From NCBI RefSeq assembly GCF_026342015.1, contig NZ_JAPENL010000001.1:248001-312000 (forward strand): a stretch of DNA of 64,000 nt, in the 5' to 3' direction. The position numbers were made by a program, and so were the translations under genes. Shown in pieces: positions 9,117 through 20,163 of the stretch (positions are counted from its first letter, which is position 1; each line of letters begins with the position of its first letter). Under the pieces are notes generated by a model. That model was not told the origin of the DNA. It ran no database searches and was given only the letters and a program-made list of their open reading frames with translations. The DNA is from Micromonospora lupini (lineage in GTDB: Bacteria; Actinomycetota; Actinomycetes; Mycobacteriales; Micromonosporaceae).

Positions 9117-9931
9117 TGGCCACCGCCGCAACGGCCACCGCCGAGAACGACCAGCCGGCCGCCGACGAACCGCCGGTCCTCGAAGCCCGGGGCATCGTCA
9201 AGCGGTTCGGCCACGTCGAGGCGCTGCGCGGTGCCGACTTCACCGTGCACAAGGGTGAGGTCGTCGCGCTCATCGGCGACAACGGTGCCGGAAAGAGCAC
9301 ACTGATCAAGACGTTGTCCGGTGTGCACGCGCCCGACGAGGGTGAGATCCGGGTGGGTGGCCGTCCCGTGCACTTCGCGACGCCTGTGGACGCCCGGCGC
9401 GCGGGGGTGGAGACCGTCTACCAGGATCTGGCGGTCGCTGACGACCTCAGCGTCGCCGCCAACCTCTACCTCGGGCGGGAGATCCTGCGCTCCGGGCCGC
9501 TCGGCCGGCTGGGGCTGCTCGACAAGCGCGCCATGCGGCAGGGTGCCGCCGCGGCCCTCGCCGAGCTGGGCGTGCGGATTCCCCGGGTCACCACGCCGAT
9601 CGCGATGCTGTCCGGTGGGCAGCGGCAGTGCGTGGCGGTGGCACGGGCGATCATCTGGGCGACGAACGTGGTCATTCTCGACGAGCCGACCGCGGCGCTG
9701 GGCGTCGTGCAGACCGGGCGGGTGCTCGACGTCGTTCGCCGGGCCCGGGACGCTGGCATGTCGGTGGTGCTGGTCAGCCACAACATGCCGCAGGTGCTCG
9801 AGATCGCCGACCGGGTGGAGGTGCTGCGCCTGGGCCAGCGGGCGGCCCGGCTGCGTGCCGACGAGGTCACCACCGACGACCTGGTCGCGGCAATGACCGG
9901 GAGCACTGGCGCGGAGCGGGACGAGCGGTGA
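9116..9931 (+). CDS. Sugar ABC transporter ATP-binding protein (single nucleotide-binding domain)
   Basis: The 271-residue protein energises the importer encoded just upstream. Walker A is GDNGAGKST, the signature is LSGGQRQ, Walker B is VVILDEPTAALG and the switch His lies in VLVSHN. Unlike the usual RbsA/XylG partners of about 500 residues with two fused ATPase domains, only one domain is present, as in FrcA-type systems, so it probably works as a homodimer. ATG 9116 overlaps the preceding stop by one base. Confidence 0.92.
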   Translation: MATAATATAENDQPAADEPPVLEARGIVKRFGHVEALRGADFTVHKGEVVALIGDNGAGKSTLIKTLSGVHAPDEGEIRVGGRPVHFATPVDARRAGVETVYQDLAVADDLSVAANLYLGREILRSGPLGRLGLLDKRAMRQGAAAALAELGVRIPRVTTPIAMLSGGQRQCVAVARAIIWATNVVILDEPTAALGVVQTGRVLDVVRRARDAGMSVVLVSHNMPQVLEIADRVEVLRLGQRAARLRADEVTTDDLVAAMTGSTGAERDER

Positions 9932-12621: not shown

Positions 12622-13029
12622 TCAGGCGAGCGCTGCCAGGTCGGCGAGGAGCTGCTGCACCCGGGTCCGAATGTCGTCGCGGATTCCACGCACGGCCTCG
12701 ACGTCCTTGCCGGCCGGGTCGTCGAGTTTCCAGTCCTCGTAGCGCTTGCCGGGGAAGACCGGGCAGGCGTCGCCGCAGCCCATTGTCACGATGACGTCGG
12801 AGGACTCGGCGGTGGCGTACTCCAGGAGCTTTGGGATCTGGTCGGTGATGTCGATGCCGACCTCGCGCATGGCGGCGACGGCGGCGGGGTTGATCGTCTC
12901 GGCCGGGGCGGAGCCGGCCGAGCGGACCTCGACGGCGTCGCCGGCGAGGTGGCGCAGCCAGCCGGCGGCCATCTGGGAGCGGCCGGCGTTGTGGACGCAG
13001 ACGAACAGGACGCTTGGTGTGTCGCTCAT
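12622..13029 (-). CDS. arsC: Arsenate reductase, low-molecular-weight phosphatase type
   Basis: The 135-residue cytosolic enzyme reduces arsenate to arsenite for export. The phosphatase-like P-loop is CVHNAGRS near the N terminus, and the partner cysteine region is GCGDACPVFPGKRYEDW. The ATG overlaps the stop of acr3 by four bases (ATGA), placing it last in an arsR-acr3-arsC operon. Confidence 0.93.
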   Translation of the reverse strand: MSDTPSVLFVCVHNAGRSQMAAGWLRHLAGDAVEVRSAGSAPAETINPAAVAAMREVGIDITDQIPKLLEYATAESSDVIVTMGCGDACPVFPGKRYEDWKLDDPAGKDVEAVRGIRDDIRTRVQQLLADLAALA

Positions 13030-14126
13030 CGTGACGCCTCTCGGTCGAGGGGTGTGGCAAAGAGGCGGCGGCGCGCCCAGAGCGAGACGTGGACGAGGCC
13101 GACCAGCACGGGCACCTCGATCAGCGGCCCGACGACCCCGGCGAGCGCCTGGCCGGAGGCCACGCCGAAGGTGCCGATCGCGACCGCGATGGCGAGTTCG
13201 AAGTTGTTGCCGGCGGCGGTGAACGCGAGGGTGGTCGTGCGCGGGTAGCCGAGGCCGAGGGCCCGGCCGAGAGCGTAGGAGCCGGCCCACATGAGCGCGA
13301 AGTACACAAGCAGCGGCAGGGCGATGCGGGCGACGTCGAACGGCCGGCCGGTGATGGCGTCGCCCTGCAGGGCGAACAGGATCGCGATGGTGAACAGCAG
13401 CCCGTACAGGGCGACGGGGCCGATGCGGGGCAGGAGGCGGGATTCGTACCAGTCACGACCCCTGGCGCGCTCGCCGAGGCGGCGGGTGAGGTAGCCGGCA
13501 AGCAGCGGGATGCCGAGGAAGACGAGCACGTTGCGGGCGATCTCCCAGGCCGAGACGCGCAGCTCGGCGCCCGACAACCCGAGCCACCGCGGCAGCACCG
13601 ACAGGTAGAACCAGCCGAGCAGGCCGAAGGTCAGGACCTGGAAGACCGAGTTGAGCGCGACCAGGACGGCCGCGGCCTCGCGGTCGCCACACGCGAGGTC
13701 GTTCCAGATGACGACCATGGCGATGCAGCGGGCGAGGCCGACGATGATCAAGCCGGTGCGGTACGCGGGCTGGTCGGCCAGGAACACCCAGGCCAGGGCG
13801 AACATCACGGCCGGCCCGACGAGCCAGTTGAGGACCAGCGACGAGATCAGCAGGCGGCGGTCGCCGGTCACTGTGCCGAGTCGGTCGTAGCGGACCTTCG
13901 CCAGCACCGGATACATCATGACCAGCAGGCCGAGCGCGATCGGCAGTGAGATCCCGCCGACCGCCACCGCGTCCAGCGCGTCGTCGAGCCCGGGGATCAG
14001 GCGGCCGAGGAGCAGTCCGACGACCATGGCCAGCCCGATCCAGACGGGAAGGAACCGGTCGAGTCGGGAGAGTCGACCGACGACGGCGCTCGCGGCCGGG
14101 TCGGTCTGGCGGGTGAGGGTGCTCAC
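13026..14126 (-). CDS. acr3: ACR3-family arsenite efflux transporter
   Basis: The 366-residue membrane protein of the bile-acid/arsenite fold has about ten transmembrane segments and exports arsenite. The conserved ACR3 cysteine motif is in LARCIAMVVIWNDLACGD, and a second family motif is AAGNNFELAIAVAIG. GTG 14126 overlaps the arsR stop in a GTGA junction and its own stop overlaps the arsC start, so all three genes are translationally coupled. Confidence 0.93.
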   Translation of the reverse strand: MSTLTRQTDPAASAVVGRLSRLDRFLPVWIGLAMVVGLLLGRLIPGLDDALDAVAVGGISLPIALGLLVMMYPVLAKVRYDRLGTVTGDRRLLISSLVLNWLVGPAVMFALAWVFLADQPAYRTGLIIVGLARCIAMVVIWNDLACGDREAAAVLVALNSVFQVLTFGLLGWFYLSVLPRWLGLSGAELRVSAWEIARNVLVFLGIPLLAGYLTRRLGERARGRDWYESRLLPRIGPVALYGLLFTIAILFALQGDAITGRPFDVARIALPLLVYFALMWAGSYALGRALGLGYPRTTTLAFTAAGNNFELAIAVAIGTFGVASGQALAGVVGPLIEVPVLVGLVHVSLWARRRLFATPLDREASR

Positions 14127-14506
14127 GAGCACTCCGGCCGGGCGGCGGTAGCGGCGTCGGCACCTGTCGGCACGACGGTGAGCAGCGCGGCGAGTTGCCG
14201 CAGGACCGTCGGTCGGGCGCGGTAGTAGACCCAGGTGCCGCGGCGGTCGGCGTCGACGAGCCCGGCCTCGCGCAGCGTCCGCAGGTGGTGCGAGATGGTC
14301 GGGCCTGTCAGGTCGAACGCGGGGGTGAGGTCGCAGACGCAGATCTCGCCGCCCTCGGCGGAGGCGATCATCGACATCAGCTGCAGGCGGACCGGGTCGC
14401 CGAGGGCCTTGAACGCGGGGGCGAGCGCGGCTGCGGTCTCGGCCGGCACGCGCCGCTCGGACAGGGGCGGGCAGCACAGCACGTCCACGGCCGCTTGTTT
14501 CGACAT
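14123..14506 (-). CDS. arsR: ArsR-family arsenite-responsive repressor
   Basis: The 127-residue winged-helix repressor carries the arsenic-sensing motif EICVCDL in the alpha-3 position and a DNA-recognition helix (GPTISHHLRTLREAGLV). An additional Cys pair, LCCPP, is near the N terminus. It heads the ars operon and faces the divergent acetyltransferase. The 98-base space between them has repeated GACAGAC sequences (14518, 14562) and an AATCAG/CTGATT inverted repeat, a likely shared operator. Confidence 0.92.
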   Translation of the reverse strand: MSKQAAVDVLCCPPLSERRVPAETAAALAPAFKALGDPVRLQLMSMIASAEGGEICVCDLTPAFDLTGPTISHHLRTLREAGLVDADRRGTWVYYRARPTVLRQLAALLTVVPTGADAATAARPECS

Positions 14507-14604
14507 TTCTCTAGGTTGACAGACATCTAATCAGCGTGCAACTGTCTGATTCGACAGACGTCGAGACAGTGTCTTCTGGCCCGAGACCGGAACGGAGCCC
14601 GCCG
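14507..14604. promoter_or_regulatory. Divergent ars promoter-operator region
   Basis: This AT-richer spacer between arsR and the acetyltransferase contains TTGACAGACATCT followed by a second GACAGACGTC about 45 bases on, plus AATCAG inverted as CTGATT. The repeats are consistent with one ArsR dimer site per direction. Exact binding positions cannot be fixed by eye. Confidence 0.5.
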
Positions 14605-15102
14605 ATGACCGACCTGACCACGCGCCCGCTGACCGCCACCGACGCCTACCGTGTCCTGACGATCTACCAGGCGGGCCTCGACAGCGGTGACGCCAGCTTC
14701 GAGACCACCGCGCCGACCTGGGAGGCGTTCGACACCACCCGGTTGACCGCGCACCGCTTCGTGGCCGTGGACGCCGATGGCGTCATCCTCGGCTGGGTCG
14801 CGGTCACACCGACATCGAGTCGCCCGGTCTACGCCGGAGTGGTCGAGCACTCCGTCTACGTCGACCCGGCGGCCCAGGGGCGCGGCGTCGGCCGGGTGTT
14901 GCTCGACGCGCTGATCACCTCGACCGAGGCCGCCGGCATCTGGACCATCCAGTCCGGCATCTTCCCGGAGAACACCGGCAGCCTGGCCCTGCACCGGCGG
15001 GCCGGGTTCCGTGTCATAGGCGTCCGGGAGCGGATCGGCCGCCACCACGACCGCTGGCGCGACGTCGTCCTGCTCGAACGCCGCAGCCCCACCATCAGCT
15101 GA
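14605..15102 (+). CDS. GNAT N-acetyltransferase, ArsN-like
   Basis: The 165-residue protein resembles phosphinothricin/methionine-sulfoximine acetyltransferases: TIYQAGLDSGDASFET at the N terminus, the acetyl-CoA loop QGRGVGRVLL, and ENTGSLALHRRAGFRVIGVRERIG. Proteins of this kind placed in ars operons (ArsN1) acetylate the arsenic antibiotic arsinothricin, and the position here supports that reading. Phosphinothricin or other amino-acid analogues remain possible substrates. ATG 14605 is preferred over the frame start at 14536. Confidence 0.8.
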   Translation: MTDLTTRPLTATDAYRVLTIYQAGLDSGDASFETTAPTWEAFDTTRLTAHRFVAVDADGVILGWVAVTPTSSRPVYAGVVEHSVYVDPAAQGRGVGRVLLDALITSTEAAGIWTIQSGIFPENTGSLALHRRAGFRVIGVRERIGRHHDRWRDVVLLERRSPTIS

Positions 15103-15116
15103 CGAGGAGTCGCCAG

Positions 15117-16511
15117 ATGAACGCCCCACACAGCCTTCCCGTCGTAGTCGTCGGCGCTGGCCCGGCCGGCCTCGCCGCCGCCGCCCACCTGCACGAACGC
15201 GGCCTGCCCTTCGTCGTCCTGGAGGCCGGCGACACCCCGGGCGCCGCCGTCGCCCAGTGGGGGCACGTGCGGGTCTTCTCGCCCTGGCGCTACAACATCG
15301 ACCCGGCCGCTCGCCGGATCCTCGACGACGCCGGCTGGGTCGCCCCCGACCCGGAGACCCTGCCGACAGGGGCGGAGCTGGTCCGCGCGTACCTCCAGCC
15401 GCTCGCGGAGCTGCCCCAGCTCACACCGCACGTCCGCTACGGCGCCCGGGTCCAGGCGCTCAGTCGCCTCGGCCTCGACCGGCTGCGCATCGCGGGCCGC
15501 GACACCACGCCGTTCCTGGTTCGCCTCGCCGACGGCGACGAGCTGCTGGCCCGCGCCGTGATCGACGCCTCCGGCACCTGGGGCACCCCGAACGTCGTCG
15601 GCGCGTCCGGCCTGCCCGCCCGGGGCGAGGCCGACGTCGCCGCGTACCTCGAACACGCGCTGCCCGACGTGCTCGGCGCCGACCGGGACCGCTTCGCCGG
15701 GCGCCACACGCTCGTCGTGGGCGCCGGTCACTCCGCGGCGAACACCCTGCTGTCGCTGGCGGACCTGGCCGCCGCCGAGCCCGGCACCGAGGTGACCTGG
15801 GCGATCCGCACCGCCTCGCCCGCGCGGACGTACGGCGGTGGGGACGCCGACGCCCTGCCGGCGCGCGGCGCCCTCGGCGCGCGGCTGCGGGCTCACGTCG
15901 ACGCGGGGCGGGTCCGGCTGCTCACCGGCTTCTGGGTGCACGCCCTCACGCCTGTCGACGGGCGCGTCCGGGTTGTCGTCCGGCACGCCGACGGCGGCGA
16001 GGAGTCGGTGCTCGTGGACCGCGTCGTCGCGGCTACCGGCTTCCGCCCGGACCACTCGATCAGCACCGAGCTGCGGCTGGACCTGGACCCGGTGCTGGGC
16101 GCGACCCGCGCGCTCGCCCCGCTGATCGACCCGAACGAGCACTCCTGCGGCACCGTGCCTCCGCACGGCGTCGACGCGCTGGGCCACCCGGAGGTGGGCT
16201 ACTACGCCGTCGGGATGAAGTCCTACGGTCGGGCGCCGACGTTCCTCATGGCCACTGGCTACGAGCAGGTCCGCTCGGTCGTCGCCGCCCTCGCCGGAGA
16301 CTGGGCCGCCGCCCGCGACGTCCAGCTCGACCTGCCCGCGACCGGCGTGTGCAGCAGCAACGCCGCCGACCCGGTGAGTGGCGACGGCTGCTGCGGTCCG
16401 ACGCCGGCCGCCGAGCCGGCCCGCCGCGGGCTGGCCACCGGCGTCTCCGGCGGGCTGCTCAGCCTCGTCGCCGTCGACACCGCGTCCGCCGGGGGCTGCT
16501 GCGCCGGCTGA
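15117..16511 (+). CDS. FAD/NAD(P)-dependent oxidoreductase of the ars locus, ArsO-like, with cysteine-pair tail
   Basis: The 464-residue flavoprotein starts with a Rossmann FAD motif (VVVVGAGPAGLAAAAHL). A second nucleotide motif is LVVGAGHSAANTLLSLA, and ATGFRPDHS is the typical ATG motif of flavin monooxygenases and thioredoxin-reductase-like proteins. The last 55 residues contain Cys at about 412, 425-426 and 461-462 (GVCSS, GDGCCG, GGCCAG), which could bind arsenite. It follows the acetyltransferase by 14 bases with GAGGAG before the ATG. Flavoproteins named ArsO occur in Streptomyces ars islands, but their reaction is not well established. Confidence 0.75.
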   Translation: MNAPHSLPVVVVGAGPAGLAAAAHLHERGLPFVVLEAGDTPGAAVAQWGHVRVFSPWRYNIDPAARRILDDAGWVAPDPETLPTGAELVRAYLQPLAELPQLTPHVRYGARVQALSRLGLDRLRIAGRDTTPFLVRLADGDELLARAVIDASGTWGTPNVVGASGLPARGEADVAAYLEHALPDVLGADRDRFAGRHTLVVGAGHSAANTLLSLADLAAAEPGTEVTWAIRTASPARTYGGGDADALPARGALGARLRAHVDAGRVRLLTGFWVHALTPVDGRVRVVVRHADGGEESVLVDRVVAATGFRPDHSISTELRLDLDPVLGATRALAPLIDPNEHSCGTVPPHGVDALGHPEVGYYAVGMKSYGRAPTFLMATGYEQVRSVVAALAGDWAAARDVQLDLPATGVCSSNAADPVSGDGCCGPTPAAEPARRGLATGVSGGLLSLVAVDTASAGGCCAG

Positions 16512-16553: not shown

Positions 16554-16907
16554 TCACCGTCGGCCTGCGCAGGCGACACAGGTACGCGCCGACGGGCGGG
16601 CGGCGAGCCGCTCGGCGGGTATGGGGCGCAGGCATCGTTCGCAGACGCCGTAGGTGCCTGCGTCGACGCGGCTCAGGGCCACGTCCAGCTCGGTCAGGCG
16701 TCGACGTGCCGCATCCAGGACGGCGCTGAGTTGTGCCCGTTCGAACGCGATCGTGCTGCCCTCGGGATCGTGTTCGTCGTCGGCGTTGGAGGACCGGGAC
16801 GCCTCGAAGAGGCTCCGCAGGTCGTCCTGAAGCGCCGCGGCCTGGGCCGTGGTCTCGTCGCGCCGGCGCAGCAGGTCCGCACGGATCGCGCGGGATTCGG
16901 TGTCCAT
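16554..16907 (-). CDS. DksA/TraR-type C4 zinc-finger protein
   Basis: The 117-residue protein has a long N-terminal helical hairpin and a C-terminal zinc finger, CERCLRPIPAERL, then CVAC. This layout matches TraR/DksA-like regulators that enter the RNA polymerase secondary channel, though actinobacterial members are poorly characterised. It is convergent with the arsenic flavoprotein and lies 39 bases beyond the three-gene operon on the same strand. Confidence 0.8.
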   Translation of the reverse strand: MDTESRAIRADLLRRRDETTAQAAALQDDLRSLFEASRSSNADDEHDPEGSTIAFERAQLSAVLDAARRRLTELDVALSRVDAGTYGVCERCLRPIPAERLAARPSARTCVACAGRR

Positions 16908-16946: not shown

Positions 16947-18152
16947 CTACATGAAGTTGCGGGTGTGCAGGGCGGAGAGCGCGGCCGCCTCGTCCGGTCG
17001 GAAACCCAGCCGGACGAGACGGCGCTGGCGGCCCTGGTCCATCGCCTGTTGCAGCGCGCGTACGTGCTCGAAGCCGGCGGCCACGTCATCGGGGTTCCAC
17101 CCGCCCGCCGCGAGCACCACCAACGCGTCGAAGACGTCCGCGTTGAGGCCCGCGGTGTCGGCCAACGCGTCGTGGCGGCGGTGGATCGCGGCACGGAGTC
17201 GGTCCCGCAGCAGCGGGTCGACGGTCGCCTGGTGCTCCAGGTGGGCCATGCCGAACACCACGTGCCGGCGCTCGTCCTGCATCGCCAGCCAGCAGATCCG
17301 GCGGGTCACCGGATCGGGAGCGTGCCGCACCAGGAATCCCAGCAGGTCGACGAAGCTGCCCTCGCCGAGCACGGAGAGCAGGAACGACGCCAGGGCGAAA
17401 TCCGACTCGGCGACGAGCGTGAAGAGCGACTGCCGGCCACCCGCCGAGGAGGTGCCCAGCTCCGCGCCGCGCAGCAGCGCCCGCCGGCTGAAGACCTCCA
17501 TGTGCCGGGCCTCGTCGGCCACCTGCACCGCGAGGAGCTGCACCACCTCCCGGAAGTGCGGGTGGATGCGGCCGATGAACCGGGCCGGTACGACGAGAGC
17601 CGCCTGCTCGTTCTCGACCAGGTAGGTCATGACCTGCACCACCGCGGCCTCGACGTCGGCCGGCAGCGTGAACGTGTCGTCCCACGGCACCGCCGTCTGC
17701 GGGTCCCACTGCCGGGCGGCGGCCTGCGCGTACAGGGTGGGGGCGATGTCGGCCCACACCAGATCGCGGTCGTCCAGGTCGAACCGGGCCTCGGGCCCGC
17801 CGGCCTCCAGCAGCGCGCCACGGGCGCCGAGCCCCCAGCGCGGCGGTGGGCGACTGTGCAGCGCCCCGGGCAGGGGCGGCCCGGCCCGCTCCGCGCCGAA
17901 CCAGCGGTCGTCGTCTGCGGTGCCCCGGACGACGACCGCCACCAGGCGACTCCGGTCCGCGGGATCGGGCCATTCGACCCGGTGACCCCGGCTTCGGCAC
18001 CACGCCGGCAGGTGCACTCCCAGCGCCGCGTCGGTGCCGGAGACCGCCAACCGGCCGCCCGGCGGCAACCCGGCCAGGGCGCGCTGCACCAGCAGGTGCG
18101 CGCCACGGTCGAAGCCGAGGCCGCCGAGATCGATGTCGACGTCGGCGGTCAC
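16947..18152 (-). CDS. Ferritin-like diiron protein with N-terminal TusA-like domain
   Basis: The 401-residue protein has two parts. Residues 1 to about 70 (DIDLGGLGFDRG, then PGGRLAVSGTDA and PAWCRSRGHRV) follow the pattern of TusA/SirA sulfur-carrier domains, but the catalytic CPxP motif is replaced by GFDRG. Residues about 130-400 form a ferritin-like four-helix domain with all likely diiron ligands: VENEQAA, DEARHMEVF, GEGSF and DERRHVVFG. It may be an oxygen-activating diiron enzyme; the substrate is unknown. The ATG overlaps the stop of the PhnD-like gene (ATGA), so it is the last gene of a coupled trio. Confidence 0.7.
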   Translation of the reverse strand: MTADVDIDLGGLGFDRGAHLLVQRALAGLPPGGRLAVSGTDAALGVHLPAWCRSRGHRVEWPDPADRSRLVAVVVRGTADDDRWFGAERAGPPLPGALHSRPPPRWGLGARGALLEAGGPEARFDLDDRDLVWADIAPTLYAQAAARQWDPQTAVPWDDTFTLPADVEAAVVQVMTYLVENEQAALVVPARFIGRIHPHFREVVQLLAVQVADEARHMEVFSRRALLRGAELGTSSAGGRQSLFTLVAESDFALASFLLSVLGEGSFVDLLGFLVRHAPDPVTRRICWLAMQDERRHVVFGMAHLEHQATVDPLLRDRLRAAIHRRHDALADTAGLNADVFDALVVLAAGGWNPDDVAAGFEHVRALQQAMDQGRQRRLVRLGFRPDEAAALSALHTRNFM

Positions 18153-18994
18153 GGCCGGTAGTCCGCGGCGGTCACCCGCCCGTCGGGGGCGTAGAACCCG
18201 CTCGCGTCGACCGCCTCGGCGAGGGCCGCGTACCCCGTCGTACGGCCGTCCTGCCAGGCCGTCAGGCCCTCCAGGTCGAGCAACGGTCGCACCTGCGGGT
18301 CGGCGTACGACATGCCGCGCAGCAGGTCGCCGAAGAGCCGGACCCCGTCGGACGCCGGCTCGCGCACCGTCATGTTGCAGTGGTCGTACCGCCCGGTCTG
18401 CGCGACGATCCGGGTGCCCTCGGGTGGCAGCGTGCCCTCCTGGACGAACATCAGGTGGTTGGCGTCGATCATGCAGGCGGCGTCGACCTCTCCGGCCGCC
18501 AGGGCGCGGGCGGCGTCACGTTCGCCGCCGATGTGGTCACCGTGCAGGCCGACACCGACGTCGAACCGGCGCACGTCGACCCGGACTCCGGCCGCGGCGA
18601 GGTGGCCGAGCGGGATCAGCGTGGCCTGCGGGCTGTCCACCGCGCCGGTGGCCACCAGCCTCCCGGCGAGATCCTCGACCCGGTGTACCGGCGAGTCGGC
18701 GCGCACCACCACGACTGAGGTGAGGTCCCGGTCGGTGTCGCGCATCGTGAGCGCGTGCACCGAGCCGCCGCCGGCCGTCGCCAACCGGTCGGCCCGTAGC
18801 CACGCGAGCGGGGAGTTCCAGGCCGCGTCGATGCGGCCGGCGACAAGGTCGTCGACCTGCCGCTCGTAGTGCGAGTAGAGGACGAAGTCGAATTCCAGGC
18901 CGCGTCCGCGCAGCCAGCCGCGAAAGCCCTCCCAGATGGTGACGACCTTCGGGTCGTACGCGACCGCGCCCATCAGGACCGACGGCGTCGGCAT
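18149..18994 (-). CDS. Cytosolic PhnD/SsuA-type binding-protein-fold protein
   Basis: The 281-residue protein resembles phosphonate/sulfonate periplasmic binding proteins (AGRIDAAWNSPLAWL, DLAGRLVATGAVDSPQATLIPL, AAGEVDAACMIDAN). It has no signal peptide and no lipobox: the N terminus MPTPSVLMGAVAYDPK leads directly into strand one. No ABC permease or ATPase is nearby. It is therefore probably a cytosolic ligand binder or an enzyme on this scaffold, as MqnA and Thi5 are. Both ends overlap neighbouring genes. Confidence 0.7.
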   Translation of the reverse strand: MPTPSVLMGAVAYDPKVVTIWEGFRGWLRGRGLEFDFVLYSHYERQVDDLVAGRIDAAWNSPLAWLRADRLATAGGGSVHALTMRDTDRDLTSVVVVRADSPVHRVEDLAGRLVATGAVDSPQATLIPLGHLAAAGVRVDVRRFDVGVGLHGDHIGGERDAARALAAGEVDAACMIDANHLMFVQEGTLPPEGTRIVAQTGRYDHCNMTVREPASDGVRLFGDLLRGMSYADPQVRPLLDLEGLTAWQDGRTTGYAALAEAVDASGFYAPDGRVTAADYRP

Positions 18995-20163
18995 CAGCGG
19001 TTGGCCTCGTCGAGCAGCGGCAGGCCGGTGGCGACGCGGCCCACGAAGTCGTGCAGGGCGTCCGTGGTCGGTGCCATCACCCGGGCGGCTCGGGAGTCCC
19101 GGAATCGGCGTTCCAGGCCCAGCTCCTTGCGGAAGGCGCTGCCGCCGCAGAGCCGCATCGCGCCGTCGGTGACGTCCGCGACAGTCTCGCCGGCCAGGGC
19201 CTTGACCTGGAGCACGCGCAGTGTCGCGTCGTCCCGGCCGGTCTCCAGCGCGGTGAGGGTGTCGCCGAGAAAGGCCCGCAGGGCGTCGGTGCGGATCGTC
19301 AACTGGGCGAAGTCGCGTCGGGCGACGGGCGCGTCACGAAGCGCCGCGCCGGTGTGCGTGAGCGTGGTGCCGGTGAGGTGCCGGCCCGCCTCGGCGACCG
19401 CGCTGTCGGCGAGGCCGAGACAGAAGGCCGCGTTGAGCACCAGGAACCAGGGGAGTACGGCGCCGAGCGCGGTGTCGAGGCCGGTGCCGTCGGTGCCCAG
19501 CATCGCGTCGACGGGGACCACCACGCCGTCGGCAGTCATCGGCCGGGAGCCGTTGCCGCGCAGGCCGAGCCCGTCGAAGTCACCGGCGACGTGGAGCCCG
19601 GCGCTGTCGGCGGGGACAAGCCACAGCGTCATCGGCCCGGCCCCCGGCGCAAGCGGAAGACTCGACCAGACGTAGCTGTCGGTCTCGCCCGCCGAGGTGA
19701 CCCAACTCTTGCGGGCGTCGAGTCGCACCGCGTCGTCGTCGGACGCCGTCGCGGAGCCGGTGGGCGACCAGAAGTGACTGCGGGAGCCGAACTCGGAGAA
19801 CGCAAGCGTGGTCAGGTGACGGCCGGCGGCGATGGCCGCGCGGACCTCGTGCGGGCCGTGTGCCTCGACGACGGCCGTCGCCGCGTAGTGCATGAGAACC
19901 ACCATCGCCGTGGACCCACACTCGGCGGCCAGCCGTTCGACGACGTCGGCGACGACGCGCATGCCCTGGCCGCCCCCGCCGACCTCGGTCGCGCTGGCCA
20001 GGCCGAGCAGGCCGGCGGCGGCGAGGGCGTCGACCCCCTCGCGGGGAAACGCCCCGTCGCGGTCGACGGTCCCCGCCCGCGGGCGGATCACGTCCTCGAT
20101 CACGCTGTTGAGTCTGGTGAGGACATCGGTGCGGGACTGGACACTGTCGACACCTGCCGTCAT
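18994..20163 (-). CDS. Acyl-CoA-dehydrogenase-fold flavoprotein of unknown reaction
   Basis: The 389-residue protein has the acyl-CoA dehydrogenase fold: an N-terminal helical domain, a middle beta domain (TLAFSEFGSRSHFW, then LDARKSWVTSAGETDSYVW) and a C-terminal helical domain with LCGGSAF. The usual catalytic Glu region is replaced by RVMAPTTDALHDFVG, without a Glu. It may be a flavin-dependent monooxygenase of the DszC/HpaH sort or a dehydrogenase acting on another substrate. GAAGGGG lies before ATG 20163. The stop overlaps the next gene's ATG by one base. Confidence 0.75.
   Translation of the reverse strand: MTAGVDSVQSRTDVLTRLNSVIEDVIRPRAGTVDRDGAFPREGVDALAAAGLLGLASATEVGGGGQGMRVVADVVERLAAECGSTAMVVLMHYAATAVVEAHGPHEVRAAIAAGRHLTTLAFSEFGSRSHFWSPTGSATASDDDAVRLDARKSWVTSAGETDSYVWSSLPLAPGAGPMTLWLVPADSAGLHVAGDFDGLGLRGNGSRPMTADGVVVPVDAMLGTDGTGLDTALGAVLPWFLVLNAAFCLGLADSAVAEAGRHLTGTTLTHTGAALRDAPVARRDFAQLTIRTDALRAFLGDTLTALETGRDDATLRVLQVKALAGETVADVTDGAMRLCGGSAFRKELGLERRFRDSRAARVMAPTTDALHDFVGRVATGLPLLDEANR

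What the first reader, a model, noticed from the sequence alone, without database searches (positions are those of the whole stretch)
16947..20163. Overlapping three-gene operon of unknown function: ACAD-fold flavoprotein, cytosolic PhnD-like protein, TusA-like/ferritin-like fusion
The genes overlap by one and four bases, so their products are probably made in fixed ratio. Each is an unusual member of its family: the flavoprotein lacks the usual catalytic Glu (APTTDALHD instead), the binding-protein-fold member lacks a signal peptide and a transporter, and the fusion joins a TusA-like domain without its CPxP cysteine to a diiron domain with a full ligand set. Together they suggest an oxidative pathway in which a small ligand is held by the PhnD-like protein and a carrier-like domain presents it to the diiron site. 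I know no described system with this set.
Basis: partly seen in the sequence, partly recalled or inferred. Interest (0 to 1): 0.72.

Follow-up and report, generated by a model that had tools for sequence, protein, structure and literature searches.

The report
Three-gene selenium module in aerobic bacteria
Three overlapping genes of unknown function turn out to travel, in many kinds of bacteria, with the gene that activates selenium, so they probably form an unrecognised, perhaps oxygen-using, module that supplies selenium to the cell, although the chemistry is not yet shown.

Summary
In detail: an acyl-CoA-dehydrogenase-fold protein without its catalytic Glu (ACAD), a PhnD-fold protein without signal peptide (SBP) and a TusA-like/diiron fusion (FUS) overlap by 1 and 4 bases. 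The set is not strain-specific: 63 of 69 FUS loci, from six named phyla, keep ACAD-SBP-FUS in order on one strand. SelD is in 67 of 69 of these genomes; one miss has a broken set, the other still has MnmH. Among 199 Streptomyces, 6 of 8 genomes with FUS have SelD against 32 of 191 without (p 0.0007); both exceptions are degenerate or fragmentary. In several lineages the trio lies among selA, selB, selD, tRNA-Sec, mnmH or a selenium-type transporter, though not in the window. It occurs with selenocysteine users and with selenouridine-only users, so it most likely acts before SelD. I propose a selenium-supply module: SBP holds a small selenium compound; the flavoprotein and diiron protein convert it, perhaps with O2. 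The selenium link is strong, the direction moderate, the chemistry inference. Nine paper searches aimed at it listed no description.

The parts
18994..20163 (-). ACAD: acyl-CoA-dehydrogenase-fold protein, 389 aa, catalytic Glu replaced by Ala364, invariant His92
18149..18994 (-). SBP: PhnD-fold protein without signal peptide, 281 aa; H151-G-D153, E158, H205-C206 invariant in 50 of 50
16947..18152 (-). FUS: TusA-like domain without CPxP (about residues 1-75) fused to a VlmB/ADO/R2lox-like diiron domain (about 100-400)
18994..18994 (-). 1-base stop/start overlap ACAD/SBP (TGATG)
18149..18152 (-). 4-base stop/start overlap SBP/FUS (GTGA)

Best explanation
ACAD-SBP-FUS is a selenium-supply module that works upstream of SelD in aerobic bacteria. 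Shown by computation: the trio is conserved and nearly always found with SelD; it is repeatedly next to sel genes; it occurs with selenocysteine genomes and with genomes that have only the selenouridine enzyme. Inferred: the PhnD-like protein binds a small selenium compound in the cytosol, perhaps a selenium oxyanion or an organoselenium oxyacid such as methylseleninate, using the invariant His205-Cys206 pair where transport relatives have Asp-Tyr. The flavoprotein, acting as an oxygenase or oxidase rather than an acyl-CoA dehydrogenase, and the diiron domain oxidise it so that selenium is freed and, after reduction, used by SelD. The TusA-like domain, which lacks the CPxP cysteine, is more likely a docking domain than a carrier.
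For: SelD over its curated cut-off in 48 of 50 plus 19 of 19 = 67 of 69 FUS genomes. Base rates: 244 of 396 in the phylum sample, 38 of 199 in Streptomyces. Streptomyces: FUS above 500 bits in 8 of 199; SelD in 6 of these 8 against 32 of 191 (Fisher p 0.0007); in 5 of the 6 SelD lies within 14 kb of FUS. Phylum sample: FUS above 290 bits in 8 of 396, SelD in all 8 (p 0.026; four of the 8 are one genus and one is G000). Neighbours: SelD in 13, SelA in 12, SelB in 11, MnmH in 3, TIGR04553-type transporter in 4 of 69 loci. On the FUS tree 18 of 73 rows carry such a neighbour, and well-supported branches force at least 11 changes of that label. L050 (Variovorax) has Fdh-FdhE-SelA-ACAD-SBP-FUS-SelB, SelD, a TIGR04553 transporter and MnmH; L105, a distant actinobacterium (FUS about 41% identical), has SelD-SelA-SelB-ACAD-SBP-FUS on one strand with tRNA-Sec. 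Direction: of 47 SelD-positive FUS genomes tested for SelA, 41 have it and 5 of the other 6 have MnmH. SBP resembles the binding protein of that transporter. In AioX, a PhnD-fold protein, arsenite is linked to a Cys (PMC5908839, passages). G000 itself has SelD, SelA, SelB, tRNA-Sec and FdhA.
Against: No biochemistry. 55 of 73 rows of the tree have no detected sel-type neighbour in the flanks held, and the 64-kb window has none. Most SelD genomes lack FUS (32 of 38 in Streptomyces), so the trio is not needed for selenium use. Two of 69 lack SelD. ACAD is absent from the locus in four loci with flanks in place (L008, L013, L061, L070); two of those genomes have only a 35% relative elsewhere, two none at E 1e-30. 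One genome (G417) has SelD and FUS but neither SelA nor MnmH. The tests are not corrected for phylogeny, and the samples overlap (G612 has the same SelD coordinates as L021's genome). Oxygen use, ligand and order of action are untested. Why an oxidative route should feed selenide, a reduced species, is unexplained unless the source is organoselenium.
Confidence: 0.6

Rival explanations
1. The trio acts downstream of SelD: it uses selenophosphate to make a further selenium metabolite or cofactor, a new selenium trait beside selenocysteine, selenouridine and selenoneine.
For: Near-strict company of SelD. The nearest diiron structure, VlmB, is an azoxy synthase. G417 has SelD and FUS but no detected SelA or MnmH.
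Against: A separate trait should often occur with SelD alone; 46 of 47 tested SelD-positive FUS genomes have SelA or MnmH. Among 126 hand-picked flanking proteins no biosynthetic family recurs (first 25 of 123 families seen). SenA/SenB were not searched.
Confidence: 0.15
2. The trio protects against or disposes of excess selenium (oxidises reactive selenide or methylated selenium) without feeding SelD.
For: Oxygenase-type proteins; occurrence in selenium users, which must handle selenide (inference).
Against: Detoxification genes should also occur without SelD; 67 of 69 FUS genomes have it, and two SelD-less genomes hold degenerate sets.
Confidence: 0.12
3. One reading: a general oxidative pathway for an unknown ligand, not tied to selenium; or a sulfur-scavenging set like SfnB or DszC operons.
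For: ACAD has weak similarity to SfnB and DszC (77 and 52 bits); TusA is a sulfur family.
Against: SelD profile and neighbourhood. SfnB and DszC scores are far under the curated cut-offs of 430.9 and 850.
Confidence: 0.08
4. Lineage artefact: FUS and SelD co-occur because both mark certain large soil genomes.
For: SelD is in 244 of 396 genomes of the phylum sample, and the p value there is only 0.026.
Against: Within one genus the association holds and SelD is mostly within 14 kb; adjacency recurs in distant lineages.
Confidence: 0.04

Closest known systems
YedF (SirA/TusA-like + DsrE-like domains) and the other SelD-linked candidates YedE, DUF3343 and a LysR-type regulator (PMC5322559, passages)
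   Same: Genes linked to SelD by context; a TusA-like domain fused to a second domain
   Different: FUS has a diiron domain in place of DsrE and no CPxP; the words acyl-CoA, ferritin and phosphonate occur 0 times in that paper's main text
Rv1679 (FadE16) and Rv1680 families, NCBIfam NF049984 and NF049985
   Same: Best curated matches to ACAD and SBP; adjacent genes by their numbers
   Different: 378.1 bits against a cut-off of 600 and 213.3 against 400; I did not examine that genome
PhnD/PtxB/HtxB/AioX-type binding proteins and TIGR04553 (putative selenate ABC transporter binding protein)
   Same: Fold; TIGR04553 proteins lie near the trio in 4 of 69 loci
   Different: Trio SBP has no signal peptide, an extra loop (GxHGDHxGGE in most) and His-Cys where the transport proteins have Asp-Tyr
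VlmB azoxy synthase, aldehyde-deformylating oxygenase, R2lox; AurF
   Same: Helical bundle and 4 Glu + 2 His
   Different: 13-20% identity in the top structural alignments; fused TusA-like domain; conserved C-terminus
Acyl-CoA dehydrogenases and ACAD-fold flavin monooxygenases DszC, SfnB, MsuC
   Same: Fold; His92 aligns with a His of a DszC-like protein
   Different: No catalytic Glu; nearer in sequence to dehydrogenases than to DszC

Membership tests
Acyl-CoA dehydrogenase | ACAD domains / fold | tested here: met
   Pfam N, M and C domains at or over cut-off; PDB profile hits
Acyl-CoA dehydrogenase | catalytic Glu of the YEG motif | tested here: not met
   Ala364 in the window; Ala in 36 and Ser in 1 of 37
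SfnB / DszC flavin monooxygenases | curated NCBIfam score | tested here: not met
   77.4 bits against 430.9 and 51.9 against 850
PhnD-type ABC binding protein | PhnD-like fold | tested here: met
PhnD-type ABC binding protein | signal peptide | tested here: not met
   first strand at residues 5-11; judged from the sequence, no signal-peptide program was run
PhnD-type ABC binding protein | adjacent permease and ATPase genes | tested here: inconclusive
   none recognised by eye beside the trio in the window; a transporter lies near the trio in 4 of 69 loci
Rv1679 / Rv1680 families (NF049984, NF049985) | curated score | tested here: not met
   378.1 against 600; 213.3 against 400
TusA | TusA fold/domain | tested here: inconclusive
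   22.3 bits against 28.6 in the window; 25 of 43 relatives match at E 0.01 or better; TusA structures hit only at E about 0.02; predicted topology fits
TusA | CPxP cysteine | tested here: not met
   0 of 43
Ferritin-like diiron oxygenase | 4 Glu + 2 His in a helical bundle | tested here: met
   invariant in 43 of 43; model; structural matches
Ferritin-like diiron oxygenase | bound iron and O2 chemistry | not testable with these tools
   needs spectroscopy
AurF | Pfam AurF curated score | tested here: not met
   16.4 bits against 29.6 in the window; 35 of 43 relatives match at E 0.01 or better
YedF | DsrE domain | tested here: not met
   no DsrE match listed for the window or for the 43 relatives
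SelD-linked selenium genes | co-occurrence with SelD | tested here: met
   67 of 69
SelD-linked selenium genes | genomic adjacency to sel-type genes | tested here: met
   18 of 73 rows of the tree; not in the window itself
SelD-linked selenium genes | effect on selenium incorporation | not testable with these tools
   bench experiment

The most novel reading that the evidence does not exclude
An oxygen-dependent selenium-scavenging pathway: a cytosolic binding-protein-fold protein holds an organoselenium oxyacid through an invariant His-Cys pair, and a flavin oxygenase and a TusA-diiron oxygenase break the C-Se bond, giving aerobes selenium for SelD from a source that other bacteria cannot use.
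Probability: 0.3. Interest if true: 0.9.

Novelty: categorically new. Interest (0 to 1): 0.8.

Why it matters
How bacteria obtain selenium for SelD is open; [quoted passage not shown] Three protein families that the searched papers do not list among selenium genes are here tied to SelD in six named phyla, in selenocysteine and in selenouridine users. That gives a compact, testable candidate for selenium supply in aerobes, and would give a function to proteins now called hypothetical, ferritin-like or acyl-CoA dehydrogenase. A protein search scored 7996 candidates and kept 5351 relatives of FUS; how many are true FUS was not counted.

Tried and rejected
Considered and set aside: a TusA sulfur relay (CPxP absent); an acyl-CoA dehydrogenase step (Glu absent); plasmid spread (no FUS match at E 1e-30 in 72,556 plasmid records). 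Not tested: a link to the arsenic-like genes beside the trio in the window. Literature: Rv1679/Rv1680/FadE16; combinations of trio and selenium terms; TIGR04553; MoeX/Rv1681. I saw only the listed top papers (for example 20 of 88, 20 of 59, 10 of 28, 12 of 316); no listed title or abstract start describes the trio. One search was for AioX only. VIA-align barely tests the N-terminal domain of FUS, which was not folded alone. L071-L081 (another diiron family without TusA, ACAD or SBP) were left out of all counts; so were L090 and L091 (FUS-like, about 180 bits, no ACAD or SBP found in about 4 kb). Many weak diiron-domain hits (under about 115 bits) were not counted as FUS. The gene caller for flanks is crude. 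Of 222 listed flanking ORFs I picked 126 by hand; the pick dropped, among others, L018, L027, L049 and L050, but kept four loci already known to have SelD next door, so its top family (AIRS, 4 of 126) is no independent evidence. The co-occurrence tests are not corrected for phylogeny.
Full report

Conservation of the trio. In 63 of these 69, ACAD, SBP and FUS lie in that order on one strand; between aligned ends the SBP-FUS gap is at most 150 bases in 63 of 63 and the ACAD-SBP gap in 60 of 63. Of the other six, one contig starts inside FUS (L048), four lack ACAD at the locus (L008, L013, L061, L070) and one has ACAD on the other strand (L037). Tree labels name Actinomycetota, Pseudomonadota, Myxococcota, Planctomycetota, Acidobacteriota and Chloroflexota, plus unplaced bacteria. 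Seven more distant copies (L083-L089, short loci) also have SBP and ACAD-like sequence beside FUS at E 1e-5; in L083 and L085 the order is FUS-ACAD-SBP, and in the other five the ACAD match is weak (31-33% identity) and fell below the stricter cut-off.

The selenium link. Clustering the ORFs of the 69 loci gave, after the trio itself, families that turned out to include SelD, SelA, SelB, formate dehydrogenase and FdhE. NCBIfam confirmed, around the trio of Variovorax guangxiensis (L050), SelA (575 bits), SelB (483), SelD (540), FdhE, a TIGR04553 'putative selenate ABC transporter' binding protein (368 against a cut-off of 250) and MnmH. tblastn found SelD in 13, SelA in 12, SelB in 11, MnmH in 3 and the TIGR04553-type binding protein in 4 of 69 loci. 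On a FUS tree of 73 rows, 18 carry at least one such neighbour; the label needs 13 changes, at least 11 on well-supported branches (18 of 500 shuffles are as low), so the link has been gained or lost many times. A distant actinobacterial genome (G100, L105) has SelD, SelA, SelB, ACAD, SBP and FUS in a row on one strand, with tRNA-Sec.

Whole genomes. SelD passes its curated cut-off in 48 of 50 and 19 of 19 FUS genomes, 67 of 69. The two misses: Saccharothrix (L037), whose FUS is split between two frames and whose ACAD has moved, and which also lacks SelA and MnmH; and a deltaproteobacterial assembly (L031) that has MnmH, an enzyme known to need SelD, so SelD may be missing from the assembly. 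Background: SelD is in 244 of 396 genomes of the phylum sample and in 38 of 199 Streptomyces. In that Streptomyces sample FUS above 500 bits is in 8 of 199; 6 of the 8 have SelD against 32 of 191 (Fisher p 0.0007). The two without are G511, whose three genes are truncated or frame-broken, and G633, an 81%-complete genome whose FUS is cut by a contig end. In five of the six, FUS and SelD are under 14 kb apart; in the sixth (G487) about 157 kb. One of the six, G612, has the same SelD coordinates as the genome of L021, so the two samples overlap. In the phylum sample all 8 genomes with FUS above 290 bits have SelD, a weaker result (p 0.026) with four of the 8 in one genus and G000 itself among them. 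The reverse does not hold: most SelD genomes of both samples lack FUS.

Own genome. The 64-kb window holds no SelD, SelA, SelB, MnmH or Fdh match at E 1e-6; one ABC ATPase gave a weak match at 9179-9928. The same genome has SelD (C3:993535-994443), SelA (C1:876199-877449) and, beside SelA, tRNA-Sec, SelB and formate dehydrogenase. MnmH was not found. It looks like a selenocysteine user with its sel genes dispersed.

Before or after SelD. Of 50 FUS genomes tested for SelA (G000 included, G424 not), 42 have it. The 8 without were tested for MnmH: 6 have it, G417 and G421 have neither; G421 is the Saccharothrix above. Among the 47 SelD-positive genomes tested for SelA, 41 have SelA, 5 have MnmH but no SelA, 1 (G417) neither; one of its two SelD copies sits at a contig end, so the genome may be incomplete. 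A module that follows SelD whatever the selenium is used for is most simply a supplier to SelD. It is optional, so it may open an extra source or serve some condition.

Mechanism (inference). Where the transport relatives have Asp-Tyr in the ligand loop, trio SBPs have the pair His205-Cys206, invariant in 50 of 50, and they carry an extra loop with H151-G-D153 and E158 invariant; that these line the pocket is inferred from alignment, not measured on the model. PhnD-fold proteins bind small oxyanions such as phosphite, hypophosphite, methylphosphonate and arsenite (titles), and AioX links arsenite to a cysteine (PMC5908839, passages). A cytosolic relative of a selenium-type transporter's binding protein that holds a selenium oxyanion or organoselenium oxyacid is therefore plausible. 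ACAD-fold flavin monooxygenases that act on sulfur compounds include DszC and methanesulfinate monooxygenase (titles); the trio ACAD keeps a His that aligns with a His of a DszC-like protein (that it is catalytic in DszC is recalled), but it is nearer in sequence to dehydrogenases. Two oxygenase-type proteins with one binding protein suggest oxidative release of selenium from a small compound. None of this is shown. A NifS-like gene directly after FUS in L021 fits selenium handling but is a single case that I looked at.

What is known. The 2015 comparative-genomics paper names YedE, YedF, a LysR-type regulator and DUF3343 as candidates; 'acyl-CoA', 'ferritin' and 'phosphonate' occur 0 times in its main text (PMC5322559, passages). 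'Acyl-CoA' and 'ferritin' occur 0 times in two reviews (PMC13188914, PMC9312934; passages). Nine searches of the held library listed no paper on the trio; most subscription papers and preprints are not held. The nearest curated families are those of Rv1679 and Rv1680, with scores well under their cut-offs; the papers found under those names were seen as a listing, one in passages (PMC8562490), where Rv1680 is called a putative phosphonate transporter component.

Verdict. Observation confirmed; interpretation partly supported and redirected. Dedicated to selenium metabolism: about 0.9. Upstream of SelD: about 0.6. Oxidative release from a small organoselenium compound: about 0.3. I rate the module categorically new because no described selenium system that I found has these parts or this kind of chemistry; if it proves to be only another delivery route to SelD, 'new variant of a known kind' would be fairer.

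Noticed in passing
window 12622-16511: An arsenic-like cluster beside the trio, named by eye from translations: arsenate-reductase-like and ACR3-like permease, ArsR-like regulator, GNAT acetyltransferase and a flavin monooxygenase.
   Followed up: no
window 16554-16907: A small protein just downstream of FUS that looks like DksA/TraR by eye; the Micromonospora relative L002 has a zf-dskA_traR protein at the same place (L002:11245-11595).
   Followed up: no
L008, L070, L013, L061: SBP-FUS pairs without a neighbouring ACAD; the two Streptomyces genomes have only a 35% identical ACAD elsewhere, the other two none at E 1e-30.
   Followed up: partly
L037:9135-13821; L103:9035-11421: Degenerate trio copies in two genomes without SelD, as expected if the trio is useless without it.
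   Followed up: yes
L071-L081: AurF-like proteins about 30% identical to the FUS diiron domain, mostly two in tandem, without SBP or ACAD nearby, in Gammaproteobacteria and other assemblies, SAR202 and Dehalococcoidia among them.
   Followed up: no
L007:11290-12513: A DszC/SfnB-like ACAD-fold protein directly downstream of FUS, below both curated cut-offs.
   Followed up: partly
L021:11214-12413: A NifS-like class-V aminotransferase directly downstream of FUS (418 bits to NifS, cut-off 530.75).
   Followed up: partly
window 16950-16970 (FUS residues 395-401): The C-terminus LHTRNFM is nearly unchanged across phyla: L395, H396, T397, N399 and M401 in 43 of 43, F400 in 39 of 43; the last residue is poorly ordered in the model. 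It may dock into a partner.
   Followed up: no
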